Source: Serinicoccus sediminis (lineage in GTDB: Bacteria; Actinomycetota; Actinomycetes; Actinomycetales; Dermatophilaceae). From it: a DNA stretch of 36,333 nt. Made by a program: the position numbers and the translations under genes. Within the stretch, counting starts at the first letter, position 1, and every line of letters starts with the position of its first letter. Under the pieces are notes generated by a model. The model was not told where the DNA came from. It saw nothing but the letters and a program-made list of their open reading frames with translations, and did no database searches. Location: the NCBI RefSeq assembly GCF_004153545.1, contig NZ_SDVA01000026.1, positions 1-36,333 on the forward strand, given 5' to 3'. Positions 5,936 through 29,271 of the stretch are shown one piece after another.

Positions 5936-5968
5936 GTGCTCCCGTCCCGGTCGGTGCTGCGCATGGTC

Positions 5969-5974
5969 AGACTA
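5969..5974 (-). promoter_or_regulatory. Candidate -10 box (TAGTCT) of the SQR-like operon
   Basis: TAGTCT on the minus strand would start a transcript with a leader of about 27 nt containing GGGAG near the ATG at 5935. No consensus -35 box was seen. Confidence 0.35.
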
Positions 5975-5998
5975 TCCGGGAGTCCGGGTATGCCTCCT

Positions 5999-6054
5999 GT
6001 CCAGCGGTCCAGCGGTCCAGCGGTCCAGCGGTCCAGCGGTCCACTTGTACAGCG
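5999..6054 (+). repeat. 8-bp tandem repeat (GTCCAGCG x5 plus two degenerate units)
   Basis: Five perfect GTCCAGCG units (5999-6038) are followed by GTCCACTT and GTACAGCG. The array lies between the SQR-like gene and the SNF2 helicase gene, upstream of both. Being non-coding and outside any hairpin, it could vary in copy number by slippage. Confidence 0.9.
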
Positions 6055-6093
6055 GTCCCGCAGGTCGTCGGCGTCGCCGTCGGACCCTGCGGC

Positions 6094-6099
6094 TACGCT
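6094..6099 (+). promoter_or_regulatory. Candidate -10 box (TACGCT) of the SNF2 helicase gene
   Basis: TACGCT ends 8 nt before the ATG at 6108 and 6 nt before an in-frame-independent GTG at 6106, predicting a transcript with almost no leader. No -35 consensus was seen. Confidence 0.35.
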
Positions 6100-6107
6100 C
6101 GCCGGTG

Positions 6108-13346: not shown

Positions 13347-13353
13347 GCCCGGC

Positions 13354-13359
13354 AATCTA
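13354..13359 (-). promoter_or_regulatory. Candidate -10 box (TAGATT) of the ctlX-like gene
   Basis: On the minus strand TAGATT ends 7 nt before the GTG start at 13346, again predicting a leaderless transcript. No Shine-Dalgarno sequence precedes the GTG. Confidence 0.4.
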
Positions 13360-13398
13360 TGGCATCTGGTGCGCCCTTCCGAAAAAGTCCTGACGAGC

Positions 13399-13424
13399 TG
13401 TCGATCCGGCGCCGCCCCGTCCGA
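13399..13424 (+). promoter_or_regulatory. Putative ECF42-dependent promoter
   Basis: TGTCGA (13399-13404), a 17-nt spacer and CGA (13422-13424). From memory, ECF42 target promoters carry TGTCGA at -35 and CGA/CGT-like bases at -10, upstream of DGPF/YCII genes. The site is 52 nt before the first YCII gene of this ECF42 operon, so the sigma factor probably drives its own operon. Confidence 0.65.
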
Positions 13425-13476
13425 CATGCTGGTGAGGTCGCGCACGGCGGCCCGCACGAGGAGCAAGGAGAGCAGC

Positions 13477-13839
13477 ATGAGTTCCTACACCGTTCTCATC
13501 ATCGGGGCGGCCGACCGCTGGTGGACGTCGATGAGCCTGGCCGAGCGCACGGAGGGGTATGCGCAGTACGCCCGGCTCGGCGAGGCGCTCGCCGCCGGGG
13601 GGCACCGGGTGGTCGGCGGAGCCGAGCTGACCCGGACGTCGGAGGCCCGGTCCATCCCGGCCGGCGGCGGACCGGCGACCGACGGCCCGTACGCCGAGAC
13701 CGTCGAGCAGGTCGGTGGCTACTACCAGGTCGAGACCGACGACCTCGACGGTCTGGTGGAGTGCTTCCAGATCATCGCCCGCACCGGCGACGGCATCGAG
13801 ATCCGGCCCAATGTCGACGCCGCCGACCGGCCGAGCTGA
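13477..13839 (+). CDS. YCII/DGPF-domain protein (first)
   Basis: The 120-residue protein carries the YCII-related signature DGPYAETVEQVGGYYQVET in its second half, a variant of the DGPF motif. Such small ferredoxin-like-fold proteins are the standard genomic partners of ECF42 sigma factors; their biochemical role is unknown, though a ligand-binding or sigma-modulating role has been suggested. A good ribosome-binding site (AAGGAG, 6 nt spacing) precedes ATG 13477. It is the first gene of a three-gene operon; the second YCII gene starts 10 nt later. It is about as similar to that gene as expected for an old tandem duplication (shared DGPYAE-VEQ-GG block). Confidence 0.9.
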   Translation: MSSYTVLIIGAADRWWTSMSLAERTEGYAQYARLGEALAAGGHRVVGGAELTRTSEARSIPAGGGPATDGPYAETVEQVGGYYQVETDDLDGLVECFQIIARTGDGIEIRPNVDAADRPS

Positions 13840-13849
13840 GGAGCCGACC

Positions 13850-14203
13850 ATGAAGTACGTCATCCTGCTCATGTCCGAGGGCGAGATGCCCGCCTGGTCC
13901 GCGCTGAGCGAGGAGGAGCAGCAGGCGGGGATGGCCCGGTTCGAGGCCTTCGACGCCGCGTGCCGGGCCCGCGAGGGCGTGGAGATCCTGGCCGGCGAGG
14001 CGCTCGGCGCGGGCGACACCGCGACGACCGTGCGTACCCGCGGCGGCGAGCGCATCGTCACCGACGGTCCCTATGCGGAGGCGGTCGAGCAGCTGGGCGG
14101 GTTCTACCTCCTGCAGGCCCCCGACCTCGACGTCGTGCTCGACCTGCTCACCGTCCTGCCGCCCTACGACATCCAGGTCAGCCCGGTGGTCGACCCCTAC
14201 TGA
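13850..14203 (+). CDS. YCII/DGPF-domain protein (second)
   Basis: The 117-residue product begins MKYVILLMSEG, the typical start of YCII proteins encoded next to ECF sigma factors, and has the conserved DGPYAEAVEQLGGFYLLQAPD block near residue 73. The ribosome-binding site TGAGGAG overlaps the stop codon of the preceding YCII gene, and the sigma-factor gene starts 5 nt after this stop, so all three are one transcript. As in other ECF42 operons, the function of the protein is not established; no catalytic motif is recognisable. Confidence 0.92.
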   Translation: MKYVILLMSEGEMPAWSALSEEEQQAGMARFEAFDAACRAREGVEILAGEALGAGDTATTVRTRGGERIVTDGPYAEAVEQLGGFYLLQAPDLDVVLDLLTVLPPYDIQVSPVVDPY

Positions 14204-17177: not shown

Positions 17178-17218
17178 GACTGAGCCGGTCTGCAGCAGTG
17201 CTGCGGACCGGCTCAGTC
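17178..17218. terminator. Long perfect hairpin, probable bidirectional terminator
   Basis: GACTGAGCCGGTC (17178-17190) pairs perfectly with GACCGGCTCAGTC (17206-17218); the bases between, GCAGCA and TGCTGC, extend the stem almost to a minimal loop. It lies between convergent sdaA/small ORF and nagA and covers the nagA stop codon. There is no T-run on either side. Confidence 0.85.
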
Positions 17219-18349
17219 GCCGTCAGGGCCGGAGAGGACCTCTCCGGCCCGGACCACGAGGTGCACGTCGAGGTCGGCGTCGAGCCCGACGAGGTCGGCA
17301 CGGTGACCCGGGGCCAGCTGGCCGGCGTCCAGCCCGAGGGTCCGGGCGGGGTTGCTCGTGGCGGCGACGAGCGCGGCGCACCGCGCGACGCCGGAGGCGA
17401 CGGAGGTCCGGACCGCCCGGTCCAGGGTGAGGGTGCTGCCAGCGATCCGCCCCGTGTCCACGGTCCGCGCCACCCCGTCGACCACCTCCACGTCCATCGG
17501 GCCGAGGCGGTAGCGACCGTCGGGCGCGTGCGCCGCCGCCATCGCGTCGCTGACGAGCACGATGCGCGACAGGGTGCTGCGCACGGTGAGCTCGACGACG
17601 TCGGGGTGCACGTGCACGCCGTCCGCGACGAGCTCGACCGACAGCCGCGGGTCGGCGAGGGCGGCGACGACCGGGCCCGGGTCCCGGTGGTGCAGCGGCC
17701 GCATGGCGTTGTAGAGGTGGGTGACGACGGTGGCCCCCGCGTCGGCGGCGGCGCGCAGCTGGTCGGCGTCGGCGTCGGTGTGCCCGACGGCGACGACCAC
17801 CCCCGCCGCGACCAGACGGCGGACCGCGTCCATGCCGCCGGGCAGCTCGGGCGCCAGGGTCACCATGCAGATGCCCCCGCCGCCGGCCTCCAGCAGGGCG
17901 TCGATCTCGGCCGGGTCGGGGTGACGGAGGTCACCGAGGTGGTGGGCCCCGCGGTGGAGCGGGCTGAGCCACGGCCCCTCCAGGTGGATGCCGTCGATCA
18001 TCCGCCCGCGCACCAGCGGGGCCAGCGCGCGGACCTGCTCCAGCAGCGTCTCCGGGTCGGCCGACACGAGCGAGGCCACCACGCTGCTCGTCCCCGCGGC
18101 GTGGTGGGTGGCGGCCGCGGCCCGGACCTCGTCCGGGTCGGTCGTGGCGAAGGTATGCCCCCCGCCGCCGTGGCAGTGGATGTCGACGAACCCCGGCGAC
18201 AGGTAGGGGACGTGCCGGTCCGCGGGGTAGAGCGGGGCGCCCCGGCCCACCTGGGTGATCCGGTCGCCCTCCACGGCGACCCACCCGCCGTCGAGGGTGC
18301 CGTCCGGCCAGAGGACGTGCTCCCCGGAGATGACCGTCCTGTCCCTCAT
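17213..18349 (-). CDS. nagA: N-acetylglucosamine-6-phosphate deacetylase
   Basis: NagA removes acetate from GlcNAc-6-phosphate to give glucosamine-6-phosphate, the step before NagB. The 378-residue amidohydrolase has the metal site HCHGGGG (His58, His60), metal ligand Glu in IHLEGPWLSP (~122), VGHTDAD (~190), THLYNAM (~212) and the catalytic Asp in VSDAMAA (~266); NPARTLGL and GHRADLVGLD near the end are family-typical. Start ATG shares one base with the nagZ stop (TGATG), so translation is coupled. It is the last gene of the seven-gene minus arm, and its stop lies within the hairpin terminator. Start in this position is unambiguous; much longer upstream frame belongs to nagZ in another phase. 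Confidence 0.95.
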   Translation of the reverse strand: MRDRTVISGEHVLWPDGTLDGGWVAVEGDRITQVGRGAPLYPADRHVPYLSPGFVDIHCHGGGGHTFATTDPDEVRAAAATHHAAGTSSVVASLVSADPETLLEQVRALAPLVRGRMIDGIHLEGPWLSPLHRGAHHLGDLRHPDPAEIDALLEAGGGGICMVTLAPELPGGMDAVRRLVAAGVVVAVGHTDADADQLRAAADAGATVVTHLYNAMRPLHHRDPGPVVAALADPRLSVELVADGVHVHPDVVELTVRSTLSRIVLVSDAMAAAHAPDGRYRLGPMDVEVVDGVARTVDTGRIAGSTLTLDRAVRTSVASGVARCAALVAATSNPARTLGLDAGQLAPGHRADLVGLDADLDVHLVVRAGEVLSGPDGD

Positions 18350-19875
18350 CACACCCCCCGCAGGGCGTCCGCGGCAGCCCCCGCGCCGGCCGCGCCGCCG
18401 CCGTAGGTCCGCACGACGCAGGCAGGCGCCGCACCGGCGGGCAGGTCGCGGATGCCGGTGTGCACCAGCACGTCGCACCGGCCGAGCAGGCGGAGTGCCT
18501 GCTCGTGCCCCAGGTCGGTCTGGTCGTCGCTCACGAGGACCAGTCCACCACGACCGGCGTCGTCGGACACCCCGTCCGCCTCGACGACCCGCCCACCGAG
18601 CTCGGCCGCCAGGACCGTGGTGACGACCTCCTGCCGGGCCCCGCTCGCGATGTTGGCGCGGCCACCCAGGGCGGCCACCACCGGCTCGGGCAGCGACGGC
18701 ACCGTCCCGGCCACCCGCACGGCACGGGCGGCGGCGGCCCGCCCCGCCCGGGCCGCCGCCCCGTCGTCCGTTCGCGTGTCGACCGCGCGCGCCCCGCTGT
18801 CGCCGTGATGACCACGCGTCTCGTCCGTCGGCTCCTGCCCCGACCGTCGCTCGGCCTGACGGTCGCCGAGAGCGGCCACCCGCGCAGCGGCCTCGCGCAG
18901 CCGCTCCTCGGGCAGCTCGCCGCTGCTCACCGCCTCCACCACCGCGTCGGCGAGCGCCAGCGTGTCGGCCTCCGCGTCGTAGTCGCCCGGGAAGGCCGGG
19001 TTGCCGATGCACAGCAGGTCGGCCCCGGCGGCGAGCGCGAGCACCGCGGCGCCCGCACGGCCATACCCCTGCGCCACCGCCGCCATGTCGAGGGCGTCGG
19101 TGCAGATGACGCCCTCGAAGCCCAGCTCGCGCCGCAGCAGGCCGAGGACCGAGGGGTTGAGCGTGCCCGGCAGGTCGCCGTGTCCCGGCACCACGAGGTG
19201 GCCGGTCATGACGACCGGTACGCCGGCGCGGACCGCCGCGCGGAAGGGCACCAGCTCGCGGGCAAGGAGCAACGCGTCGTCGACGTCGAGCACCGGCAGG
19301 TCGAGGTGGGAGTCGACCCGGGTGGAGCCGTGCCCGGGGAAGTGCTTGGCGCAGGCCAGCACCCCGGCCTCGCCGAGCCCCTCGACGGCCGCGACGACGT
19401 GCCGCGAGACGTGCTCGGGGTCGGCGCCGAAGGAGCGCACCCCGATGACCGGGTTCGCCGGCTCGGTGTTGACGTCGGCGTCCGGCGCCGCCGTCAGGTC
19501 GATGCCGACCTCGCGCAGCTGCCGACCGAGCCCGCGCATCACCTCGCGGGTGAGGTCGACGTCGTCGGCCACGCCCAGCGCCCACGCGCCCGGCCAGGGG
19601 GAGCCGTCCCGGTGGTGCAGCCGGGTGACGGTGCCCCCCTCCTCGTCGGCGGCGACGAGCGCCGCGGGTCGGCGGGCGTGCACCTCCTCGGCCAGGGCGG
19701 CCACCTGGGTCTCGTCCTCGACGTTGTGGCCGAAGAGCCACACGCCCGCCAGTCCCTGGTCCAGCAGCTCACCCGCCCAGCCCGGCAGCGTGGTGCCGAC
19801 GAAGCCGGGGGCGAGCACGCCGAGCGCGGCGCGGCGCAGCTCGTCCGTCCCGGTCTGTGAGGAGGTGTCGGTCAT
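18349..19875 (-). CDS. nagZ: Beta-N-acetylhexosaminidase (NagZ-type GH3) with C-terminal domain
   Basis: Glycoside hydrolase family 3 enzyme expected to split GlcNAc from MurNAc or anhydroMurNAc in imported wall fragments. The catalytic (beta/alpha)8 domain spans ~10-345: DEEGGTVTRL (78-87), KHFPGHGSTRVDSH (177-190, the NagZ loop with its catalytic His-Asp dyad) and nucleophile Asp260 in CTDALDM. No signal peptide is present, so the enzyme is cytoplasmic. At 508 residues it is longer than Gram-negative NagZ (~340): a polar linker (~345-385) leads to a second alpha/beta domain as in two-domain NagZ of Gram-positive bacteria. It overlaps the upstream permease stop by 4 nt (ATGA) and nagA by 1 nt. 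Confidence 0.93.
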   Translation of the reverse strand: MTDTSSQTGTDELRRAALGVLAPGFVGTTLPGWAGELLDQGLAGVWLFGHNVEDETQVAALAEEVHARRPAALVAADEEGGTVTRLHHRDGSPWPGAWALGVADDVDLTREVMRGLGRQLREVGIDLTAAPDADVNTEPANPVIGVRSFGADPEHVSRHVVAAVEGLGEAGVLACAKHFPGHGSTRVDSHLDLPVLDVDDALLLARELVPFRAAVRAGVPVVMTGHLVVPGHGDLPGTLNPSVLGLLRRELGFEGVICTDALDMAAVAQGYGRAGAAVLALAAGADLLCIGNPAFPGDYDAEADTLALADAVVEAVSSGELPEERLREAAARVAALGDRQAERRSGQEPTDETRGHHGDSGARAVDTRTDDGAAARAGRAAAARAVRVAGTVPSLPEPVVAALGGRANIASGARQEVVTTVLAAELGGRVVEADGVSDDAGRGGLVLVSDDQTDLGHEQALRLLGRCDVLVHTGIRDLPAGAAPACVVRTYGGGAAGAGAAADALRGV

Positions 19876-20693
19876 CCCTTGGTCGCTCCTGACATGAGTC
19901 CGCTGGAGAGCCGCGACTGGACGGCGACGAAGAAGATCATGACCGGGACGGTGATGATCGAGCTGGCCGCCATGACGGCACCCCAGTCGGTGCCGCTGCG
20001 GGTGAAGAAGGTCCGCAGGCCGACGGCGGCGGTGTACATGTCGTCGTCGGCCATGAAGGTGAGGGCGAAGATGAACTCGTTCCACGCCAGGATGAAGCTG
20101 AAGACGCTCACCGCGACCAGACCCGGGGCGACGAGCGGGAAGAGCACCTTCCAGAACATCTGCCACCAGCTGGCCCCGTCGAGGTAGGCCGCCTCCTCCA
20201 GCTCCACCGGCACCGCGGCGACGAAGCCGCGCAGGGTCCAGATCGCGAAGGACAGGCTGAACGCGATGTAGACCACCGACAGCCCGAGCAGGCTGTTGAG
20301 CAGCCCCAGCGTCTTGGCCTGCAGGAAGAGCGGGATGACCAGCGCCTCCATCGGCACCATCTGCACGATGAGGATCATCATGAGGATCTTGGTGCGCCCG
20401 GAGAAGCGGAAGCGGGCGACCGCGACCGCGGCGAACAGCGCGAGCAGCCCGCTCGCCACGACGGTGACCACGGCGACGATGAGCGAGTTGAGCAGGTAGC
20501 TGGGGAACCGGGTCTCCGACAGCACCCGGCCGAAGTGCTCGAGGGAGATCCCGGACGGTATGACGCCGCGCCCGCCCGCGTTCGCCGCCGGGTCGAGCGC
20601 GGTGCCGACCATGACGAAGACCGGGAAGATGCTGAAGACCACGACGACGACGCAGGCCAGCACCAGCCCGCCGCGCCCGAGCAGCCGCCTCAC
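19872..20693 (-). CDS. Carbohydrate ABC transporter permease (MalG type)
   Basis: The 273-residue inner-membrane permease has six predicted membrane segments and the EAA loop EEAAYLDGASWWQMFWKVLFPLVAPG (~173-198) that docks the ATPase. An N-terminal segment, periplasm-facing loop and C-terminal SSGLMSGATKG agree with MalG-type proteins. With the second permease and the lipoprotein it should import an amino sugar or muropeptide-derived disaccharide. There is no ATPase gene in the locus; many actinobacterial sugar transporters borrow a shared MsiK-type ATPase, so this is expected. Start GTG 20693 overlaps the upstream permease stop (GTGA), and its own stop overlaps the nagZ start. Confidence 0.93.
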   Translation of the reverse strand: MRRLLGRGGLVLACVVVVVFSIFPVFVMVGTALDPAANAGGRGVIPSGISLEHFGRVLSETRFPSYLLNSLIVAVVTVVASGLLALFAAVAVARFRFSGRTKILMMILIVQMVPMEALVIPLFLQAKTLGLLNSLLGLSVVYIAFSLSFAIWTLRGFVAAVPVELEEAAYLDGASWWQMFWKVLFPLVAPGLVAVSVFSFILAWNEFIFALTFMADDDMYTAAVGLRTFFTRSGTDWGAVMAASSIITVPVMIFFVAVQSRLSSGLMSGATKG

Positions 20694-21595
20694 AGCTCCT
20701 CCTCCTTGAACAGCGTCCGCAGGTAGACCGCGGTGATGACCATGAGCAGGACGGTGAGCAGCACCGCGATGGCGGCGCCGAGCCCGAACTGGTTCTGCGA
20801 CATGGCGGTGATGTAGCTCCAGGTGCCCAGGTTGAGCACCTCACGGTTGGAGCCGTCACCGCCGGGCATGAGGTAGATCTGGGTGAAGACCTTGAAGTCC
20901 CAGATCGTCGACAGGATGGTGACGATCGCGAAGACCGGCTTGAGCATCGGCAGGGTGACGTGCCGGAACCGCTGCCAGGCGTTGGCGCCGTCGATCATCG
21001 CCGCCTCCGGCAGCTCGGACGGGATGGTCACCAGCCCGGCGAGCACGGTCACGGCGACGAAGGGGAAGCCGTGGTGCACGACGTTGAGGGTGGCGATGGC
21101 GTAGAACCACCCCCGCTCGGTGAAGAGGTTCTGGGTGGCGACGTCGACCAGGCCGAGCTGCCCGAGGACGCCGGTGAGGAAGCCGGCCCGGGCGTCGAAG
21201 AGGTAGACCCACACGTAGGTCCCGGTCACGGCCGGCACCGCCCAGGCGGCCATGACCGCCATCGTCACCAGCGTCCGCCAGCCGGGGGAGAGGCGGTGCA
21301 GCAGCAGGGCCACGAGGGTGCCGACGACCACCGTCAGCACCACGCAGACCAGCGCGAAGACGACCGTGTTGGGCAGCGCCACCCGCCACAGCCGCTCGTC
21401 GGTGAGGACGTCGCGGTAGTTCTGCAGGCCGATCAGCTCGGCACCGCCGCGCACCAGCTCGCGCAGGCCGAAGTCCTGGAAGGACAGGACGACGACGCGC
21501 ACCATGGGCCACAGCAGCAGGATGCCGATGACGGCCAGGGTCGGCGCGAGCAGCAGCCACGGCCGCCGCGCCGACCCCAGGGCGGGCGAGCTCAC
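20690..21595 (-). CDS. Carbohydrate ABC transporter permease (MalF type)
   Basis: The 301-residue protein has six membrane segments beginning with WLLLAPTLAVIGILLLWPMVRVVVLSF and the EAA loop ELPEAAMIDGANAWQRFRHVTLPML (~200-224). It pairs with the MalG-type permease immediately downstream. GTG 21595 overlaps the binding-protein stop (GTGA) and its own stop overlaps the next permease start, so synthesis of the transporter subunits is coupled. The substrate is inferred from the surrounding nagZ, nagA, murQ, anmK and nagB genes to be a cell-wall sugar, but direct sequence evidence for specificity is lacking. Confidence 0.93.
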   Translation of the reverse strand: MSSPALGSARRPWLLLAPTLAVIGILLLWPMVRVVVLSFQDFGLRELVRGGAELIGLQNYRDVLTDERLWRVALPNTVVFALVCVVLTVVVGTLVALLLHRLSPGWRTLVTMAVMAAWAVPAVTGTYVWVYLFDARAGFLTGVLGQLGLVDVATQNLFTERGWFYAIATLNVVHHGFPFVAVTVLAGLVTIPSELPEAAMIDGANAWQRFRHVTLPMLKPVFAIVTILSTIWDFKVFTQIYLMPGGDGSNREVLNLGTWSYITAMSQNQFGLGAAIAVLLTVLLMVITAVYLRTLFKEEEL

Positions 21596-22905
21596 GAGCC
21601 GAAGATCTCGTTCATCTCGTCCGCGGCGGTGGTGGCGGCCTCCTCGGGGCTCGCCTTGCCGCCGAGGATCGACTCCATCATCGCCGGGATCGTCTGGGCG
21701 CCCTCGACCTGGCCCCACTGCGGGGTGACCGGCAGCGTCGCGCTGGCCTCGAGCATCTGCTGGGCGAACGGCGCCACCAGCGGGTCCTCGGCCTCCTCGA
21801 GCTGGCTGAGCAGGTCGTTGGTCGCGGGGAAGAAGCCGGTCTGCTCCCCCCACATCTCGGCATACTCACCGGTCGTCATCATCTCGACGAAGGTCCAGGC
21901 GAGGTCCTCGTTGTCGGTCGTCTCGAAGACCGACAGGTGCGAGCCGCCGGCGAAGGAGGGCGACATGCCGCCGTCCGGGCCGGGGATCGGCACGACGCCG
22001 AGCTTGCCCTCCAGGTCGCCGTTGGCCTCGACGATCGACTTCGGGGTCCACGACCCGCTGATGATCATGCCGGCCTCGCCGCGGGCGAAGGCGTCGCGGG
22101 TGTCGGCCTCGTTCCACGTGCTGGCGGCCGGGGTGGACAGGTCGTGCTCGCCGGCCAGGCTCTCGAGGAACTGCAGGCCCTCGATCGACTCCGGGGAGTC
22201 CAGACCGGACTCCCAGGTGTCACCCTCCTGGGTGGCGACCTCGCCACCGGCGCCCCAGATGAACGGCGTGGTGGTGTGCGTCGAGTTCGGCACCGGGAAG
22301 GGGATGAGGTCGGGGTCGCTCTCCTTGAGCGCCTCGCCGACGCTGACGAGCTCATCCCAGGTGGTGGGCGGCTCGACGCCGGCCTCCTCGAGCAGGTCGG
22401 TGCGGTAGATGATCGAGCGGACACCGGCATACCAGGGAGCGCCGTAGACCGCGCCGTCGAGGGTGCCGGACTCGAGGACGCTGTCGACGTAGCCGTCGGC
22501 CAGGCCGGCCTCCTCGATCTTGTCGGAGACGTCCATGAGGGCGCCGGCGTCGCCGAACTCCGGGGTCCAGGTGGTGCCGACCTCGGCGACGTCCGGCCCG
22601 GTGCCGCCGGCGATCGAGTTGGTGAACTTGTCGTGCGCCGAGGCCCACGGGACGTACTGGATGTCGAGGGTGGCGCCGGTCTCCTCCTCGAAGGCGGTGC
22701 TCACCTCCTCGAAGAACGGCGTCGCGTCCGGGTTGGTGCCCTCCATGATCCAGACGGTGAGGGTCTCGCCGGAGGCGTCGCCACCGCCCGAGCCGGCGTC
22801 GCCGCCGGAGCCGGAGCCGGAGTCGTCGGAGCCGCAGGCCGTGAGCGTGAGGGTGGAGGCCGCCGCCAGCGCGAGCAGCCGGGTGGCACGTGAGGTGCGC
22901 ATCAT
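21592..22905 (-). CDS. Extracellular sugar-binding lipoprotein of ABC transporter
   Basis: The 437-residue protein has a lipoprotein signal peptide (TRLLALAAASTLTLTAC, lipobox LTAC with lipidated Cys near residue 24), a Gly/Ser/Asp-rich tether, then a family 1 solute-binding domain: TLTVWIMEGTNPDATPFFEEV, GGTGPDVAEVGTTW, GAPWYAGVRSIIYRTDLLEEAG and GEAGMIISGSWTP. It delivers its ligand to the two permeases encoded directly downstream. The start ATG 22905 has AAGGA at good spacing, 49 nt after the gntR stop, the largest gap in the minus arm. Ligand inferred from context: GlcNAc, MurNAc or a GlcNAc-(anhydro)MurNAc disaccharide. Confidence 0.94.
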   Translation of the reverse strand: MMRTSRATRLLALAAASTLTLTACGSDDSGSGSGGDAGSGGGDASGETLTVWIMEGTNPDATPFFEEVSTAFEEETGATLDIQYVPWASAHDKFTNSIAGGTGPDVAEVGTTWTPEFGDAGALMDVSDKIEEAGLADGYVDSVLESGTLDGAVYGAPWYAGVRSIIYRTDLLEEAGVEPPTTWDELVSVGEALKESDPDLIPFPVPNSTHTTTPFIWGAGGEVATQEGDTWESGLDSPESIEGLQFLESLAGEHDLSTPAASTWNEADTRDAFARGEAGMIISGSWTPKSIVEANGDLEGKLGVVPIPGPDGGMSPSFAGGSHLSVFETTDNEDLAWTFVEMMTTGEYAEMWGEQTGFFPATNDLLSQLEEAEDPLVAPFAQQMLEASATLPVTPQWGQVEGAQTIPAMMESILGGKASPEEAATTAADEMNEIFGS

Positions 22906-22954
22906 GAGGGTGTCCTTTCGTGGGGTGTGACGTGGTGCGAGGTATGCAGCAGGG

Positions 22955-23701
22955 TCAGGGCCGCCCGCCGGCGGCGGTCGGGAAGAGGTCGACGAGGATG
23001 CGGTAGCGGTCGCCGCGGTAGACCGAGCGGACGAACTCCGCCGCCCGGCCGTCGGCCACCCGGGAGGTGCGCTCGAAGAGGAAGGCGGGGGAGCCCTCGT
23101 CCGTCCCGAGGTGCTCGGCCTCGTCCGCGGTGACGAGGTGCGGCTCGATGGTCTGGGTGCCGGCGCTGATGGTCAGCCCGTAGCGCGACTCGAGCAGCTG
23201 GTAGAACGAGGCGTCCTCCAGGTCGCTCCCGGACAGGCCGGGGACCAGCTCGGTGGGCACGTGCAGGTCCTCCAGGGCCATGGGCTCGCCGTCGGCGGTG
23301 CGCACCCGGCGCACGTGCACGACGCTGGACGTGGGGTCCACCCCGAGCACCGAGGCCAGCATCATGCCGGCCGGACGGTGCCGCGCCCAGACCGTGTGCG
23401 CGCCCGGGGTCATGCCGCGGGAGCGCATGTCGGTGGAGAAGGACGTCGCGGACAGCTGCTGGTCCACCCGCTCCGGCGCGACGAAGGTGCCGGCCCCCGC
23501 CCGCCGGATGAGCCGGTGGTCGGCGACCAACGCCTCGACCGCGCGGCGCAGGGTCATCCGGGCCACCCCGAGGTCGGCCGCCAGGTCGCGCTCGGCCGGC
23601 AGCGGCTCCCCGGGCCGCATCGGGGCGATGAGGTCCTCCAGCCGCTGGCGGACCAGCTCGACCTTGCCGAGCCGGGCGCCGTTCACGGGCTCCGCGCTCA
23701 T
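22955..23701 (-). CDS. GntR/HutC-family regulator (DasR/NagR-like)
   Basis: The 248-residue regulator has an N-terminal winged helix (LPAERDLAADLGVARMTLRRAVEALVADHRLIRRAGAGTFV, ~35-76) and a C-terminal UTRA effector domain (from ~95, with VVHVRRVRTADGEPMALEDLHV). This is the DasR/NagR/YvoA group, whose effectors are GlcN-6-P or GlcNAc-6-P, both intermediates of this locus. It is likely the local repressor, binding the operator cluster between the two arms (25323-25365), which resembles DasR sites. ATG 23701 overlaps the stop of the upstream GHL10 gene (ATGA). Effector and sites are inference from family and context. Confidence 0.9.
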   Translation of the reverse strand: MSAEPVNGARLGKVELVRQRLEDLIAPMRPGEPLPAERDLAADLGVARMTLRRAVEALVADHRLIRRAGAGTFVAPERVDQQLSATSFSTDMRSRGMTPGAHTVWARHRPAGMMLASVLGVDPTSSVVHVRRVRTADGEPMALEDLHVPTELVPGLSGSDLEDASFYQLLESRYGLTISAGTQTIEPHLVTADEAEHLGTDEGSPAFLFERTSRVADGRAAEFVRSVYRGDRYRILVDLFPTAAGGRP

Positions 23702-25302
23702 CGACCACGCACCGGCCGGGAGGCGGGGGACTGGGTGTTGTCGGTCGACAGGGCGGTGACGACGTAGACGTCGTGCTTGTCCCCGTCGGGGTCCACCCAG
23801 TCGGTGTCGCCGTCGCCCAGCACCGCGACGAGGTGGTCGGCGTCCAGGTCGTCGCAGGAGACGCGGCCCGGCCCGCGCGCGTCGTCGACGCGGTAGACGG
23901 CGAACCCGGCGTCCTCACCCGGGTGGCTCCACGACAGGGCGACGCCCTCGGCGGTGCGGGTGGTGCGGACCGAGGTCGGGGCGGCGACCTCCTCCGTGGT
24001 GCCCGGGTGCAGCGCGGGGGGCAGGGCCGGGTCGGCGTAGTGCTCGGACTGCAGGAGGGACCAGTGGTCCAAGCGGTTCGCGCGCACGTCCTTGGCGGAG
24101 AAGTAGACGTCGCCGGTGACCTGCGGGTAGTCCTCGTTGAGGTCGAGGTGGCGCACCATCTCCGCGGGGTCGGACCACTCCGGCGACTGGGTCGAGGTGC
24201 CGACCTTGTAGGTCGCCTGCCCGATCCACAGCGCCACGTCGGTGCCGTCCACCTGCTCGCTCCACCACGGGACGAGGACGTCGTAGGCCGCCGGGTCGAA
24301 GCCGATCGCCCAGTAGACCTGGGGCAGGACGTAGTCCAGCCACTCCTGCTGCACCCACAGGCGGGTGTCGGCGTAGAGGTCGTCGTAGGTCTGCGCCCCC
24401 GCCGTGGTGTCCGAACCCTCCGGGTCGGTGGCGACGTTGCGCCAGACGGCGAACGGGCTGACACCGAAGGCGACGTGCGGCTTGGCCGCTTCGATCTGCT
24501 CGTGCAGACCCTCGATGAGCTGGTCGACGTTGTCCCGCCGCCAGTCGTCGCGGTCCTCGAAGCCGGCGCCGTAGGCGGCGTAGCTGGCGTCGTCGGGGAA
24601 CTCCTGTCCGGCCACGGGGTAGGGGTAGAAGTAGTCGTCGAAGTGGACTCCGTCGATGTCGTAGCGCTCGACGGCCTCCATGATGACGGCGGTGGTGTGC
24701 TCGCGGACGGCGGGCACGCCCGGGTCGTAGTAGAGCTTGCCGCCGTAGGCCACCGTCCAGTCGGGGTTGACCCGGGCCGGGTGGTCCTCGGCGAGGGCGG
24801 TGGGGTCGGTGCCGGTCAGGGTGACGCGGTAGGGGTTGAACCAGGCGTGGAAGTCGAGGCCACGGGCGTGCGCCTCCTCGACGGCGAAGGCCATCGGGTC
24901 CCACCCGCCGAAGTCGGCGCCCTGCTCACCGGTGAGCCAGGCGCTGCTCGGCTCGAGCTCGGAGGGCCAGAACGTGTCGGCCGTCGGCCGGACCTGCACG
25001 AAGACGCTGTTGAGGCCGGAGGCGACCGCCTCGTCGTACCAGGCCTCCAGCTCGGCCTGCGCCTCCTGCGGGCTCAGCCCGGGCCGGGAGGGCCAGTCGA
25101 TGTTGGCGACGCTGGCGAGCCACACGCCGCGCATCTCGTGCAGGGGGGCCTCCGGGGCAGGGCTGCACGACGTCCACGGCGGGGCCGCCGGGGCAGGGGT
25201 GGCCTGCGAGGTGGCGGCGCCCCCGAGGGCGAGGGAGGCGCCCAGCGGGACGACGGTGCTCACCAGGGCCGCGCGGGTGCGGCGGGTACGAGGTGCGGGC
25301 AT
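23698..25302 (-). CDS. Secreted GHL10-family glycoside hydrolase (DigH/YddW-like) with Fn3-like tail
   Basis: The 534-residue protein has a Sec/Tat-like signal peptide (basic MPAPRTRRTRAAL, then a hydrophobic core and Ala-rich cleavage region near residue 35) and a GHL10 domain at ~55-430: RGVWLASVANIDWPS, VFVQVRPTADTFWPSELEP, LDFHAWFNPYRVT, DGVHFDDYFYPYP, and LPQVYWAIGF. A fibronectin-III-like domain follows (~440-530: LSWSHPGEDAGFAVYRVD). E. coli DigH of this family digests peptide-free peptidoglycan glycan, so this enzyme probably releases wall sugars outside the cell for the adjacent importer. First gene of the minus arm; AAGGA lies ~12 nt before ATG 25302. No LPXTG or lipobox is present. 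Confidence 0.92.
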   Translation of the reverse strand: MPAPRTRRTRAALVSTVVPLGASLALGGAATSQATPAPAAPPWTSCSPAPEAPLHEMRGVWLASVANIDWPSRPGLSPQEAQAELEAWYDEAVASGLNSVFVQVRPTADTFWPSELEPSSAWLTGEQGADFGGWDPMAFAVEEAHARGLDFHAWFNPYRVTLTGTDPTALAEDHPARVNPDWTVAYGGKLYYDPGVPAVREHTTAVIMEAVERYDIDGVHFDDYFYPYPVAGQEFPDDASYAAYGAGFEDRDDWRRDNVDQLIEGLHEQIEAAKPHVAFGVSPFAVWRNVATDPEGSDTTAGAQTYDDLYADTRLWVQQEWLDYVLPQVYWAIGFDPAAYDVLVPWWSEQVDGTDVALWIGQATYKVGTSTQSPEWSDPAEMVRHLDLNEDYPQVTGDVYFSAKDVRANRLDHWSLLQSEHYADPALPPALHPGTTEEVAAPTSVRTTRTAEGVALSWSHPGEDAGFAVYRVDDARGPGRVSCDDLDADHLVAVLGDGDTDWVDPDGDKHDVYVVTALSTDNTQSPASRPVRGR

Positions 25303-25322
25303 GTGCTCTCACGTCCTTGTCA

Positions 25323-25365
25323 GAGTCTCTAGACCAACGGTGCTAGACCAGTGGTCCAGAGATTG
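25323..25365. promoter_or_regulatory. Cluster of DasR-like GntR operators between the two arms
   Basis: Three overlapping matches to the DasR-type 16-mer (ACTGGTCTAGACCAGT, from memory): 25323-25338 (right half TCTAGACCA intact), 25337-25352 (ACGGTGCTAGACCAGT, 13 of 16 by hand) and 25350-25365 (left half intact). GACCAGTGGTC (25346-25356) is itself a palindrome. The sites cover the region of both divergent promoters. Binding by the locus GntR protein is inferred. Confidence 0.75.
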
Positions 25366-25366
25366 G

Positions 25367-25372
25367 CATACT
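25367..25372 (+). promoter_or_regulatory. Candidate -10 box (CATACT) of the murK-murQ arm
   Basis: CATACT ends 7 nt before GTG 25380, in line with the leaderless pattern. It lies directly beside the operator cluster, so repression by occlusion is expected. Confidence 0.4.
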
Positions 25373-25379
25373 GCCTCTC

Positions 25380-27299
25380 GTGATGTCAACGACGAACGAG
25401 CACGACGGCGTGGCGGTCAGCCTTCTGGCGGTGGACCTCGGCAAGACGGGGGCGCGGGCCCGCTGGCGGTCCGGGGAGCAGGTGCGCGAGGCAGACGGTC
25501 CTGGGGTGGTCGGGCTGGCGGCCGCCGACGGGGTCCAGCAGGTGGTGGGTGCGGTGCGTGCGCTGACCGCGTCGCTCGGGCTGAGCGGGTCGCGGGTCGA
25601 CGTGCTGGCGGTCGGGCTGGTCGGCTACCACGCGGCGAGCGGGCGACGGGAGGCCCTGGCCGACGCCCTCCTCGAGCAGGTCGCCGATGCCGTGGTGCTG
25701 ACGGGGGACGTCACGACGACCTTCGTGGGGGCCCTCGCGGGCCGTCCCGGCGTCGTGGTCGCGGCCGGCACCGGGGCGGTGGCGCTCGCCGCCGACCCGA
25801 CCGGTCGCACCGCGGTCCGGGACGGGTGGGGCTTCCTGCTGGGCGACGACGGCAGCGGGTATGCCGTGGGTCGCGCCGGCCTGCGCGCGGCCCTCGAGCA
25901 CCGCGACGGCCGGGGCGGGTCGGCCGCGCTGGAGCACGCGGCGACGGCGCGCTTCGGCGACCTCGCCGGGCTGCCGTCGGCGGTCCACTCCGAGGAGCAC
26001 CCGTCGCGGCTCATCGCCTCCTTCGCCAAGGACGTCGCCCGGGCGGCCCGGGACGGCGATGAGGTGGCGGTGCGGATCTGGGCCGACGCCGCCGACGCGC
26101 TGGCCCGCACGGCCCGCGCGGCCCGCGACGCGGTCGACCCCGGCCTGCCGGTCTGCCTGGCCGGGGGGCTGGCCGACGTCGGCCCGGTGCTCACCGAGCC
26201 CTTCGCGCAAGCCCTCGGCGCCGAGGTGCTCGCCCCGGCCGGCACCTCCCTCGACGGCGCCGAGACGCTCGCCCGCCAGGTCTGGTCGGGCGGGATCGAC
26301 CCGGTCGTGTCCGACCAGGTCACCGTGACCCGACGCACAGAACACGCGCCGGGGACACTCCGGACCACCCCCGAGCCCGCGGACGACACCCGCGCCGAGG
26401 TCATCGGCGCCCTCGCGACCGAGGGCGTCCGCGAGGACCTCCTGGACCTCGACGAGCGGGACACCCAGGAGGTGCTGCGCGAGCTGTGGGAGGCCGAGGC
26501 CACGGTTGCCCCCGCGCTCCTCGGCGTCGTCCCGGTCGTCGCCGCGGCCGTGGACGACATCGCCGACCGGCTGCGCGGCGGCGGCCGGATGTTCTACCTC
26601 GGGGCCGGGACGCCCGGGCGCCTCGCCTTCGTCGACGCCTCCGAGCTGCCGCCGACCTACGGCACCCCCGCCGATCTCGTGCGGGCGCTGCCGGCCGGTG
26701 GCGTCGAGGCCATGGTCCTGGCTCGCGAGGGGGCCGAGGACGACGGCCCGGCGGGTGCGGCCATGGTGCGCGAGGCGGGCGTCGGCCCGCAGGACGTCGT
26801 CGTGGGCATCAGCGCGTCCGGCCGCACGCCCTACGTGCTGGAGGGGCTGCGCGCGGCGGCCGAGGTGGGGGCGCTCACCGTCGCCGTGTCCAACAACCTC
26901 GGCGCACGGGCCTCCCACGGCGTCGACCACGCGATCGAGGTCGCGACCGGCCCGGAGGTCATCAGCGGGTCGACCCGGCTGAAGGCCGGCTCGTCCCAGA
27001 AGATGCTGCTCGGCGCCCTGTCCACCGCCGTCATGGTCCGGCTCGGCAAGACGCACGGGCCGTTCATGGTTGATATGCAGGCGTCCAACATCAAGCTGCG
27101 GGACCGCGCGGTGCGCATGGTGCAGCGGGTCAGCGGATGCGAGCCGGGCCGGGCCACGGAGGCGCTCGAGGCAGCCGGGTGGAGCACCAAGGTCGCGGTG
27201 GTCATGGTGCTCGGCGGCCTCACCGCCGAACGTGCCCGCGAGCTGCTCGCCGAGGGCGGCGACTCGGTGCGGGGCGCGCTCGGGATGGTGCGGTCGTGA
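25380..27299 (+). CDS. murQ: Fused amino-sugar kinase / N-acetylmuramic acid 6-phosphate etherase
   Basis: A 639-residue two-domain protein. Residues ~14-305 are a BadF/NagK/MurK-type ATP-dependent kinase: LLAVDLGKTGARAR (phosphate 1), VVVAAGTGAVAL (phosphate 2), DGWGFLLGDDGSGYAVGR and VCLAGGLADVG (adenosine). Residues ~335-639 are a complete MurQ: YLGAGTPGRL, DASELPPTYG (with the catalytic Glu), GISASGRTPYV (SIS domain), ISGSTRLKAGSSQKM and FMVDMQASNIKLRDRA. The kinase would make MurNAc-6-P and/or GlcNAc-6-P; MurQ converts MurNAc-6-P to GlcNAc-6-P and D-lactate. The two are normally separate genes. GTG 25380 or ATG 25383 is the start. The stop overlaps anmK (GTGA). Confidence 0.93.
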   Translation: MMSTTNEHDGVAVSLLAVDLGKTGARARWRSGEQVREADGPGVVGLAAADGVQQVVGAVRALTASLGLSGSRVDVLAVGLVGYHAASGRREALADALLEQVADAVVLTGDVTTTFVGALAGRPGVVVAAGTGAVALAADPTGRTAVRDGWGFLLGDDGSGYAVGRAGLRAALEHRDGRGGSAALEHAATARFGDLAGLPSAVHSEEHPSRLIASFAKDVARAARDGDEVAVRIWADAADALARTARAARDAVDPGLPVCLAGGLADVGPVLTEPFAQALGAEVLAPAGTSLDGAETLARQVWSGGIDPVVSDQVTVTRRTEHAPGTLRTTPEPADDTRAEVIGALATEGVREDLLDLDERDTQEVLRELWEAEATVAPALLGVVPVVAAAVDDIADRLRGGGRMFYLGAGTPGRLAFVDASELPPTYGTPADLVRALPAGGVEAMVLAREGAEDDGPAGAAMVREAGVGPQDVVVGISASGRTPYVLEGLRAAAEVGALTVAVSNNLGARASHGVDHAIEVATGPEVISGSTRLKAGSSQKMLLGALSTAVMVRLGKTHGPFMVDMQASNIKLRDRAVRMVQRVSGCEPGRATEALEAAGWSTKVAVVMVLGGLTAERARELLAEGGDSVRGALGMVRS

Positions 27300-28486
27300 T
27301 CGTCGTCGGGGTGGGGTCGGGCACGAGCGTGGACGGCATCGACGTGGCGGCGCTGGACCTCGTGCTCGACGGCGACGTCGAGGTGGTCCGAGCCCGCCTG
27401 CTCGGCTCGGGCACGGTGCCCTTCGACCCCGCGCTGCGCGCCGAGGTGCTGGCGGCCTTCCCGCCCGGCCGGGTCGGGCTGCAGCAGGTATGCCGTCTCG
27501 ACACCCGGCTGGGGCAGGCGTTCGCCGACGCGGTCGCCACGCTCGGCGTCGAGCTGGCCGGGCGGACCCCGGACCTCGTCGCCTCGCACGGGCAGACGCT
27601 CTTCCACGACGTCGTCGACGGCCGCGTCGCGGGAACCCTGCAGCTGGGCCAGCCCGCCTGGGTCGCCGAGCGCACGGGTGCCCCCGTCGTCTCCGACCTG
27701 CGGGTCGCCGACGTGGCGGCCGGCGGCCAGGGCGCACCCCTGGCCAGCACCTGGGACACGCTCTGGCTGGGAGGGCGGGGGCATACCTGCGCGGCGCTCA
27801 ACCTGGGCGGCATCGCCAACGTCACCGTCGTGCCGGGAGGGCCCGGCGCGGCGCAGGGCGTGCGGGCCTTCGACACCGGCCCGGCCAACGCGCTCGTCGA
27901 CGCGGTCGTCGCCCGGCTGACCGACGGTCAGCAGACGTACGACGTGGACGGCGCCGGCGCCGCGGCCGGAACGGTCGACGACGAGCTGCTGGCGGTGCTG
28001 CTGGCCGACGGCTACTACGCCCTGCCCGCGCCGAAGACGACGGGCAAGGAGCACTTCCACCTCGGGCACGTCGATGCCGCGCTCGCGACGCTGGGGCGGG
28101 AGGTCGCGGGCACCGACCTGCTGGCCACGCTCACCGAGCTGACCGTGCGCACGGTCGCCGAGGCGCTGCGCCCCTTCGCGCCGGGCGAGCTCGTCGTGAG
28201 CGGGGGAGGAGCGCGCAACCACACCCTGGTGCGAGGCCTCGAGCAGACGCTGCCCGAGGCGCGTGTCGTGACCAGCGAGGCGCACGGCATACCGGTCGAC
28301 GCCAAGGAGGCGTGCCTCTTCGCGCTCCTGGGCTTCCTCACCTGGCACGGGCTCCCGGGCACCGTCGCGGGGGTCACCGGGGCCGCGCACGCGCGCCTCG
28401 CCGGGCGCATCACACCCGGTCACGCCCCGCTGCGCCTTCCCGAGCCCGCGGGGAGCGCCCCGACGCGGCTGGTGGTGGTGGGCTGA
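27296..28486 (+). CDS. anmK: Anhydro-N-acetylmuramic acid kinase
   Basis: AnmK hydrolyses the 1,6-anhydro bond and phosphorylates anhydroMurNAc to MurNAc-6-P. The 396-residue ASKHA-fold enzyme has GVGSGTSVDGIDVA (4-17; family MSGTSxDG with Met replaced by Gly), SHGQTLFHD (~98), LQLGQPAWVAERTG, DLRVADVAAGGQGAPL (~135-150), NLGGIANVTV, FDTGPANALVD (~190) and LVVSGGGARN (~302). It implies that the cell consumes anhydro-muropeptides made by lytic transglycosylases, its own or another bacterium's. GTG 27296 overlaps the preceding stop (GTGA), and the stop overlaps the nagB start (TGATG). Product feeds the MurQ domain encoded just upstream. Confidence 0.95.
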   Translation: MIVVGVGSGTSVDGIDVAALDLVLDGDVEVVRARLLGSGTVPFDPALRAEVLAAFPPGRVGLQQVCRLDTRLGQAFADAVATLGVELAGRTPDLVASHGQTLFHDVVDGRVAGTLQLGQPAWVAERTGAPVVSDLRVADVAAGGQGAPLASTWDTLWLGGRGHTCAALNLGGIANVTVVPGGPGAAQGVRAFDTGPANALVDAVVARLTDGQQTYDVDGAGAAAGTVDDELLAVLLADGYYALPAPKTTGKEHFHLGHVDAALATLGREVAGTDLLATLTELTVRTVAEALRPFAPGELVVSGGGARNHTLVRGLEQTLPEARVVTSEAHGIPVDAKEACLFALLGFLTWHGLPGTVAGVTGAAHARLAGRITPGHAPLRLPEPAGSAPTRLVVVG

Positions 28487-29271
28487 TGGAGGTGGTGATC
28501 TGTGGTGACGTAGGGGAGATGGGCCGGCTCGCGGGTGACGTCGTGACCGGGCTGGTGCGCTCGCGCCCCGACGCCGTGCTCGGGGTGGCGACCGGCTCCA
28601 GCCCGCGCCCGGTGTATGCCGACCTCGTCGCCCGGGTGCGCGCCGGGACCCTCGACCTGTCCGGGGTGCGGACCTTCTCGCTGGACGAGTACGTCGGGCT
28701 GCCCGCGGACCACCCGTCCGCCTACCGCGCGGAGATCCGGCAGCAGCTGACCGACCCGGCCGGCATCCCGGAGGGGCAGGTGCACTCCCCGCCCGGGGAC
28801 GCGGACGACCTGCCGGCGGCCGCGGCGGCCTACGAGCGGCTCATCGAGGACGCGGGCGGGATCGACGTGCAGCTGCTCGGGCTCGGCAGCGACGGGCACA
28901 TCGCCTTCAACGAGCCGGGCTCCTCGCTGGCCAGCCGCACCCGCGTCAAGACCCTCACCCGGCGCACCCGGGAGGACAACGCCCGTTTCTTCGACGGCGA
29001 CGTCGACGCGGTGCCGACGCACTGCCTCACGCAGGGTCTCGCCACCATCAGGGCGGCGCGGCACGTCGTGCTGCTGGCGGCGGGCGAGGGCAAGGCCCGG
29101 GCGGCGGCCGAGCTGGTCGAGGGCGCGGTCTCGGCGCGGTGGCCGGCGACCGTGCTGCAGTGGCACCCGCACGTCACCGTGCTGCTCGACGAGCCGGCAG
29201 CGAGCAGGCTCGAGCTCGCGGACTACTACCGGGAGACGTGGGCCCACAAGCCCGACTGGCAGGGGCTCTAG
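28486..29271 (+). CDS. nagB: Glucosamine-6-phosphate deaminase
   Basis: NagB converts glucosamine-6-phosphate to fructose-6-phosphate and ammonia, the exit from this pathway into glycolysis. The 261-residue protein has VLGVATGSSPRPVYADL (phosphate loop), FSLDEYVGL with Asp67, LGLGSDGHIAFNEPGSS with Asp136, His138 and Glu143, the catalytic set, and KTLTRRTREDNARFF. Length is typical of Gram-positive NagB, without the allosteric C-terminal extension of the E. coli enzyme. ATG 28486 shares a base with the anmK stop. It is the last gene of the plus arm and ends 12 nt before the convergent AtoE-like gene, without a recognisable terminator. Confidence 0.95.
   Translation: MEVVICGDVGEMGRLAGDVVTGLVRSRPDAVLGVATGSSPRPVYADLVARVRAGTLDLSGVRTFSLDEYVGLPADHPSAYRAEIRQQLTDPAGIPEGQVHSPPGDADDLPAAAAAYERLIEDAGGIDVQLLGLGSDGHIAFNEPGSSLASRTRVKTLTRRTREDNARFFDGDVDAVPTHCLTQGLATIRAARHVVLLAAGEGKARAAAELVEGAVSARWPATVLQWHPHVTVLLDEPAASRLELADYYRETWAHKPDWQGL

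What the first reader, a model, noticed from the sequence alone, without database searches (positions are those of the whole stretch)
17213..29271. Self-contained, divergent peptidoglycan-sugar recovery island using an ABC importer
Ten genes give every step from outside to glycolysis: secreted GHL10 glycan hydrolase, binding lipoprotein, two permeases, NagZ, AnmK, kinase-MurQ, NagA and NagB, with a GntR regulator. Eight of the nine within-arm junctions... precisely all except gntR to the lipoprotein gene overlap by 1-4 nt (ATGA, GTGA or TGATG). The presence of anmK with a non-AmpG importer and a secreted DigH-like hydrolase suggests use of anhydro-sugars or disaccharides scavenged from walls, possibly of other bacteria.
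Basis: partly seen in the sequence, partly recalled or inferred. Interest (0 to 1): 0.7.

Follow-up and report, generated by a model that had tools for sequence, protein, structure and literature searches.

The report
Cell-wall sugar import and breakdown cluster
This is a conserved ten-gene cluster of an actinobacterium that most likely cuts cell-wall sugar chains outside the cell, imports the two-sugar pieces with an ABC transporter and turns both sugars into fuel, a new combination of known parts rather than a new kind of system.

Summary
The ten genes are real and correctly placed. One count is wrong: the two arms give eight junctions, of which seven overlap, not eight of nine. The genus is Serinicoccus/Ornithinimicrobium-like. 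Nine of its 31 searched genomes carry the island in the same order, eight with all ten genes. First, the GHL10 enzyme scores higher to Cwp19, a demonstrated lytic transglycosylase making anhydroMurNAc ends, than to DigH. That would explain AnmK: in the family 12 of 13 GHL10 genomes have AnmK, against 15 of 106 others. Second, it is not fully self-contained: no ABC ATPase and no stem-peptide amidase lie in it. Searches found no AmpG or PTS EIIC in the genome, and only one nagA above cut-off. The kinase-MurQ fusion was seen only in this genus among the samples. Proposed path: secreted GHL10, ABC import of GlcNAc-(anh)MurNAc, cytosolic NagZ, two kinases, MurQ, NagA, NagB. The importer's substrate is inferred, not shown. 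Verdict: new variant of a known kind.

The parts
23698..25302 (-). GHL10 (PF02638) secreted peptidoglycan glycan-cleaving enzyme, predicted lytic transglycosylase, with signal-peptide-like start and a C-terminal part without Pfam match
   Evidence: Pfam 295.9 bits, residues 56-378; Cwp19 phmmer 368 bits; DigH 41% over 386 aa and 308 bits by phmmer; hydrophobic N-terminus
22955..23701 (-). gntR, HutC-type regulator, DasR/NagR-like
   Evidence: GntR + UTRA; best solved relatives DasR and YvoA/NagR at E about 1e-43
21592..22905 (-). Sugar-binding lipoprotein of the ABC importer
   Evidence: SBP_bac_1; lipobox LTAC at residue 21; 41% identical homologue in a Nitriliruptoraceae cluster, L085
20690..21595 (-). 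ABC permease 1
   Evidence: BPD_transp_1; GlcT/UgpA/MalF-like, all below curated cut-offs
19872..20693 (-). ABC permease 2
   Evidence: BPD_transp_1; MalG/GlcU/UgpE-like, all below curated cut-offs
18349..19875 (-). NagZ-like GH3 beta-N-acetylglucosaminidase, two-domain, probably cytosolic
   Evidence: GH3 N domain; KHFPGHG and DSH motifs; model pLDDT 78, pTM 0.81; best folds 6k5j and B. subtilis NagZ 4gyk
17213..18349 (-). nagA, GlcNAc-6-phosphate deacetylase; only match above the family cut-off in the genome
   Evidence: TIGR00221 229.5 bits, cut-off 225.65; own-genome search
25303..25382 (.). Divergent promoter region with operator-like repeats: TAGACCAACGGTGCT at 25330-25344 and TAGACCAGTGGTCCA at 25344-25358; -10-like CATACT at 25367-25372, 7 nt before the GTG at 25380
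   Evidence: Second element kept as TAGACCANYGGTCC in 9 of 9 genomes, first as TAGACCAACGGTG in 8 of 9; exact 15-mer at one place in the genome; half-site TAGACCA as in the DasR dre consensus (PMC4398421 passage)
25383..27299 (+). Kinase-MurQ fusion: BadF-type MurNAc/GlcNAc kinase (about residues 1-310) and MurNAc-6-phosphate etherase (about 340-638); a GTG at 25380 is an alternative start
   Evidence: Pfam/NCBIfam; kinase nearest MurNAc/GlcNAc kinase 8zo3, MurQ nearest 4s12/1nri; single ORF in all nine genomes with the island
27296..28486 (+). anmK, anhydro-MurNAc kinase (GTG start)
   Evidence: PF03702 343.7 bits and NF007146 518.5 bits over cut-off 440
28486..29271 (+). nagB, glucosamine-6-phosphate deaminase
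   Evidence: TIGR00502 and NF001684 above cut-off

Best explanation
It is a peptidoglycan-sugar catabolic island. The secreted GHL10 enzyme cuts MurNAc-GlcNAc bonds in wall glycans as a lytic transglycosylase, giving GlcNAc-anhydroMurNAc pieces, and GlcNAc-MurNAc where the MurNAc lacks a stem peptide. The lipoprotein and two permeases, powered by an ATPase encoded elsewhere, import the disaccharide. Cytosolic NagZ splits it. AnmK turns anhydroMurNAc into MurNAc-6P; the kinase half of the fusion phosphorylates free MurNAc and GlcNAc; the fused MurQ turns MurNAc-6P into GlcNAc-6P; NagA and NagB give fructose-6P. A DasR/NagR-like repressor acts on the shared promoter of both arms and is probably released by GlcN-6P or GlcNAc-6P. 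Shown here: gene identity, conserved order and overlaps, family motifs, a conserved operator-like sequence, the GHL10-AnmK association. Inferred: every activity, the importer's substrate, the ATPase, the regulator's target and inducer.
For: All ten proteins match their Pfam families; nagA, nagB, anmK and murQ (NF003915) also exceed NCBIfam cut-offs. GHL10 closer to Cwp19, which makes anhydroNAM ends and, with unsubstituted NAM, reducing ends (PMC6016235 passages). GHL10 tracks AnmK: 12 of 13 vs 15 of 106 genomes; within the 52 genomes with a MurQ or kinase hit 12 of 13 vs 14 of 39; by genus 7 of 7 vs 10 of 46 (not corrected for relatedness). The two genes lie within about 2.2 kb in 7 of those 12. 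Kinase has G148 where NagK has G145 and MurK P134, not the bulky Glu/His said to block MurNAc. NagZ's start is part of the modelled fold, not signal-peptide-like, and it folds like B. subtilis NagZ. No AmpG, no PTS EIIC match; single nagA above cut-off. A Nitriliruptoraceae MAG (L085) has nagA, nagZ, gntR, a 41% SBP, permeases, murQ, GHL10, anmK and kinase together; Allorhizocola (L109) has GHL10 divergent from kinase-SBP-permeases-murQ. Regulator nearest DasR/NagR.
Against: Nothing shows what the SBP binds: its best solved relative is Lin1841, the next rows are named only as sugar-binding proteins, with maltose- and trehalose-type proteins further down; its AlphaFold model failed (pLDDT 45). 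GHL10 includes DigH, described as a hydrolase, so the product could be non-anhydro. G097 (partial GHL10 hit, residues 5-178) has no AnmK match, and L109 shows no anmK in the 18 kb held. In 5 of the 12 co-occurring genomes the two genes are far apart or on different contigs. NagZ is below its NCBIfam cut-off (161.9 vs 207), and MurQ below TIGR00274 (287.4 vs 302). At up to two mismatches the operator gives 25 matches on both strands, some in this promoter, vs 19 for the reversed pattern. The canonical DasR core is absent from the promoter (best 3 mismatches). G134 lacks nagA and nagB at the locus.
Confidence: 0.75

Rival explanations
1. General amino-sugar island: the importer takes GlcNAc or chitobiose, as NgcEFG or DasABC of Streptomyces do (recalled), and the muramic genes only handle sugars that arrive by another route.
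For: SBP has a weak NgcE match (45 bits, cut-off 400); DasR/NagR-like regulator; this is the only nagA above cut-off, so the island probably also serves GlcNAc.
Against: AnmK and MurQ act on muramic sugars (family knowledge), and the murQ-anmK pair overlaps within the same island in all nine genomes; no chitinase in the island; a related SBP sits with murQ-anmK-kinase-GHL10 in a distant lineage (L085); no importer of AmpG or PTS EIIC type was found; other importer types were not searched for.
Confidence: 0.2
2. The GHL10 enzyme is a DigH-type hydrolase, so the main import is GlcNAc-MurNAc, and AnmK handles only the anhydro chain ends made by other lytic transglycosylases.
For: 41% identity to DigH over 386 aa; DigH degrades denuded glycans and can release their anhydro ends (PMC12288456 passages); Cwp19 also gave products with reducing ends.
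Against: Higher score to Cwp19; the GHL10-AnmK association is predicted by a transglycosylase but does not exclude DigH-type release of anhydro ends.
Confidence: 0.3
3. The island serves feeding from, or attack on, walls of other bacteria rather than recovery of the cell's own turnover.
For: The enzyme is secreted and the encoded pathway leads towards glycolysis.
Against: Nothing found here distinguishes the two; own turnover gives the same fragments; no further lytic enzyme or toxin gene is among the ten.
Confidence: 0.15

Closest known systems
E. coli anhydro-muropeptide recycling (lytic transglycosylases, AmpG, NagZ, AnmK, MurQ, NagA, NagB)
   Same: Same enzymatic sequence from anhydro-disaccharide to fructose-6P (pathway recalled; partly in PMC9790009 and PMC13041923 passages)
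   Different: Carbohydrate-type ABC importer in place of AmpG; one coupled cluster; GHL10 enzyme built in; kinase fused to MurQ
B. subtilis MurNAc cluster (NagZ, NamZ, AmiE, MurR, MurQ, MurP)
   Same: NagZ and MurQ in a single cluster (cluster composition recalled)
   Different: No PTS MurP, no NamZ, no AmiE, GntR in place of MurR, cytosolic NagZ, AnmK added; a NamZ-type variant with an ABC importer does occur in the same family (L042)
Agrobacterium YejBEF-YepA muropeptide ABC importer (PMC9790009, passages seen)
   Same: ABC importer replaces AmpG
   Different: Peptide-type importer of a Gram-negative that takes muropeptides; here a carbohydrate-type importer in an actinobacterium
Cwp19 of Clostridioides difficile (GHL10 lytic transglycosylase; PMC6016235, passages seen)
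   Same: GHL10 catalytic domain; the only solved relative found by sequence at E <= 0.001
   Different: Cwp19 has CWB2 wall-binding repeats, none matched here; here encoded in a sugar-catabolic cluster
Tannerella MurTQK and MurK kinases (PMC10465942, passages seen)
   Same: Sugar kinase genetically linked to MurQ; MurK relatives among weaker solved hits
   Different: Here kinase and MurQ are one protein
DasR/NagR regulators
   Same: GntR/HutC family, best solved relatives, TAGACCA half-site
   Different: The palindromic dre core is not in the promoter; the exact site used here was found at one place in the genome

Membership tests
GHL10 peptidoglycan-cleaving enzymes | GHL10 catalytic domain full length | tested here: met
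   PF02638 1-311/311, 295.9 bits
GHL10 lytic transglycosylase (Cwp19-like) | Product ends in 1,6-anhydroMurNAc | not testable with these tools
   Score to Cwp19 368 vs DigH 308 bits is suggestive only
AnmK | Full-length AnmK equivalog | tested here: met
   NF007146 518.5 bits, cut-off 440; the best single PDB hit is levoglucosan kinase (207.2 bits), AnmK chains close behind (198.1)
MurQ etherase | Etherase family match with catalytic glutamates (identity of these residues recalled) | tested here: met
   NF003915 340.5 bits over cut-off 168, but TIGR00274 287.4 under its cut-off 302; E421 and E449 invariant in nine genus sequences
MurK-type MurNAc/GlcNAc kinase | Small residue at the lactyl site (MurK P134, NagK G145) | tested here: met
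   G148 aligns with NagK G145 (positions from PMC10465942 passages)
MurK-type MurNAc/GlcNAc kinase | Phosphorylates MurNAc | not testable with these tools
   Needs an assay
NagZ | GH3 fold with KHFPGHG and Asp-His motif | tested here: met
   NF003740 161.9 bits is under its cut-off 207
DasR/NagR regulator | GntR-UTRA, nearest to DasR/NagR | tested here: met
DasR/NagR regulator | Canonical dre core TGGTCTAGACCA in the promoter | tested here: not met
   Best match in 25303-25382 has 3 mismatches; half-sites TAGACCA / TGGTCC occur in another arrangement
Muro-disaccharide ABC importer | Lipoprotein binds GlcNAc-(anh)MurNAc | tested here: inconclusive
   Nearest solved relatives do not tell; model failed

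The most novel reading that the evidence does not exclude
The lipoprotein-permease pair is a dedicated carbohydrate-type ABC importer for GlcNAc-anhydroMurNAc and GlcNAc-MurNAc in a Gram-positive bacterium, fed by its own secreted GHL10 lytic transglycosylase and feeding a kinase-etherase fusion that channels MurNAc-6P; it would give actinobacteria a named muramic transporter of the kind that mycobacterial work has so far left unknown.
Probability: 0.5. Interest if true: 0.6.

Novelty: new variant of a known kind. Interest (0 to 1): 0.42.

Why it matters
How actinobacteria bring muramic sugars across the membrane is at least partly open: a 2026 mycobacterial preprint speculates on uptake of MurNAc by an unknown transporter (PMC13041923, passages seen). 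This island, with its relatives, names a concrete candidate importer, ties the GHL10 enzyme to anhydro-sugar metabolism in Gram-positives, and offers a kinase-etherase fusion for testing substrate channelling.

Tried and rejected
SBP structure prediction from ten sequences gave pLDDT 45; no fold search was made with it. Rfam (at gathering scores) and tRNA scans of the window found nothing. Operator at up to two mismatches: 25 matches on both strands against 19 for the reversed pattern, so no wider regulon can be claimed. The DasR dre core at up to three mismatches matches 20 places in the window (chance mean 8), two of them in this promoter, all with 2 or 3 mismatches. A literature search for a MurQ-kinase fusion gave two papers whose titles and abstracts are on other subjects (listing); searches for an ABC importer with MurQ and for GHL10 with AnmK/MurQ listed no paper on such an island (listings). 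These cover open-licence PMC only; the 2008 MurQ review is not held, so a fusion may be in print there. The paper on Rpf and anhydroMurNAc has no mention of AnmK or MurQ in the terms searched. Idea that the fusion is widespread: not borne out in the samples seen; one case, G048, matched over residues 10-602 with one stop codon inside and was not resolved. MsiK-like ATPase: no homologue of the island's permeases within 1.5 kb of it at E <= 1e-8, but no link to this importer was tested. Presence of nagA/nagB elsewhere in G134 was not tested.
Full report
Observation. ORF and junction reading and family scans confirm ten genes at 17213-29271. The left arm on the minus strand is GHL10, gntR, SBP lipoprotein, permease 1, permease 2, nagZ, nagA. 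The right arm on the plus strand is kinase-murQ, anmK, nagB. Eight within-arm junctions exist, seven overlap by 1 or 4 nt, and gntR-SBP is a 49-nt gap.

Conservation. GHL10 was searched in 31 genomes of the genus, the window's own included: 9 have it. Lengths of five of the contigs equal those of named records of Serinicoccus chungangensis, S. kebangsaanensis, two uncultured Serinicoccus and Ornithinimicrobium pekingense (Serinicoccus is in Micrococcales). In all 9 the island has the same order; 8 have all ten genes, and G134 lacks nagA and nagB at the locus. The same seven junctions can be read as overlaps in the 8 complete islands; the gntR-SBP gap is 40-49 nt in 7 of these 8, and the start choice gave an overlap in G104. 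The script preferred overlapping start codons where they existed, so these counts lean towards overlap. In the 77-83 bp divergent promoter the second operator-like element, TAGACCANYGGTCC, is kept in 9 of 9, and the first, TAGACCAACGGTG, in 8 of 9. The exact 15-mer occurs at one place in the 3.5 Mb genome; at up to two mismatches there are 25 matches on both strands, some in this promoter itself, against 19 for the reversed pattern.

The secreted enzyme. Its only solved relative by sequence at E <= 0.001 is Cwp19 (368 bits). E. coli DigH is 41% identical over 386 aa and scores 308 bits in phmmer. Cwp19 was shown to give 1,6-anhydroNAM ends on Micrococcus peptidoglycan, and reducing ends where NAM was unsubstituted (PMC6016235, passages). 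DigH degrades denuded glycans and can release their anhydro ends (PMC12288456, passages). Either way both anhydroMurNAc and MurNAc could arise, and the island encodes a kinase for each. The pairing is not peculiar to this genus. Of 119 family genomes, GHL10 is in 13 and AnmK in 27 (E <= 1e-30), and a MurQ or kinase hit in 52 (E <= 1e-20; in G014 and G062 the kinase only). Twelve of 13 GHL10 genomes have AnmK against 15 of 106 without (Fisher 2e-8); within the 52, 12 of 13 against 14 of 39 (4e-4); by genus 7 of 7 against 10 of 46 (1.3e-4). These tests are not corrected for relatedness. The exception, G097, has a partial GHL10 hit. In 7 of the 12 the two genes lie within about 2.2 kb; in the other five they are far apart or on different contigs.

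The cytosolic enzymes. NagZ has the GH3 motifs, and its model (pLDDT 78, pTM 0.81) matches two-domain GH3 N-acetylglucosaminidases, 6k5j first and B. subtilis NagZ next. Its start folds as part of the domain, so I read it as cytosolic (inference). Its NCBIfam NagZ score is under the cut-off (161.9 vs 207). The kinase half is nearest the MurNAc/GlcNAc kinase 8zo3. G148 sits where NagK has G145 and MurK has P134, the position said to leave room for the lactyl group (PMC10465942, passages). The MurQ half exceeds the cut-off of NF003915 but not of TIGR00274. AnmK exceeds its equivalog cut-off, although levoglucosan kinase is the top single PDB hit by a small margin.

The fusion. It is one ORF in all nine genus genomes that have the island. 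The genome-contig scan gave 58 loci; 27 have both a kinase and a MurQ hit on the matched strand, and 5 of these 27 are one ORF, in either order of the domains, all Serinicoccus or Ornithinimicrobium. In the family search G048 matched over 10-602 with one stop inside; I did not resolve it.

Transport. No AmpG and no PTS EIIC match was found in the genome, and only one nagA is above cut-off. No ATPase lies in the island; an MsiK/UgpC-like gene above cut-off lies at G000:C16. Two Amidase_2 genes lie elsewhere. The SBP's nearest solved relatives do not reveal the ligand. Relatives use other transporters with the same core: an SSF symporter follows anmK in two Isoptericola and in Rhodococcus marinonascens. 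A cluster with nagZ, murQ, a different SBP (23-26%), permeases and kinase occurs in 8 of the 20 stretches; in one of them, L042, I identified NamZ, a beta-lactamase-fold protein and an RpiR-type regulator in between. A Nitriliruptoraceae MAG (L085) has nagA, nagZ, gntR, SBP (41%), permeases, murQ, GHL10 (70.7 bits), anmK and kinase together, and a SIS protein in place of nagB. Allorhizocola (L109) has GHL10 divergent from kinase-SBP-permeases-murQ, but no anmK in the 18 kb held, and its SBP was found by Pfam only.

Regulation. The GntR protein is nearest DasR and NagR/YvoA. The dre consensus is A(G/C)TGGTCTAGACCA(G/C)T (PMC4398421, passage). The promoter has no close match to its core (best 3 mismatches); TAGACCA half-sites recur in another arrangement, so a related but not identical site is likely (inference). 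A CATACT element 7 nt before the GTG at 25380 suggests a leaderless transcript for the right arm (inference).

Conclusion. Known enzymes in a new, tightly conserved combination: a secreted GHL10, a carbohydrate ABC importer, the anhydro route, and a kinase-etherase fusion seen so far in one genus. Importer specificity is the key untested step. No paper in the listings of my ten searches was on such an island; those searches cover open-licence PMC only.

Noticed in passing
L042-L048, L059 (same family): A second muramic cluster type pairs NagZ and murQ with a different ABC importer (SBP 23-26% identical) and kinase; NamZ, a beta-lactamase-fold protein and an RpiR-type regulator were identified in L042 only.
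   Followed up: partly
L082, L083, L084: In two Isoptericola and Rhodococcus marinonascens the kinase-murQ-anmK core is followed by an SSF sodium symporter instead of an ABC importer.
   Followed up: partly
L074 (G134, Ornithinimicrobium pekingense): The island lacks nagA and nagB while keeping the other eight genes.
   Followed up: no
L085:8987-10894: The murQ ORF of a Nitriliruptoraceae MAG has an N-terminal part of about 340 residues without Pfam match; the start was taken mechanically.
   Followed up: no
window 12282-13484 (-) and 13631-14203 (+): A DDAH-type dimethylarginine hydrolase (PF19420) and a YCII gene lie left of the island and are beside it in 6 of 8 relatives (in L041 the stretch held ends before that point).
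   Followed up: partly
window 25367-25383: A -10-like CATACT lies 7 nt before the start of the kinase-murQ gene; the element is kept in 8 of 9 genomes, suggesting a leaderless mRNA.
   Followed up: no
window 5799-8843 (+): SNF2-related helicase of about 1014 aa outside the island.
   Followed up: no
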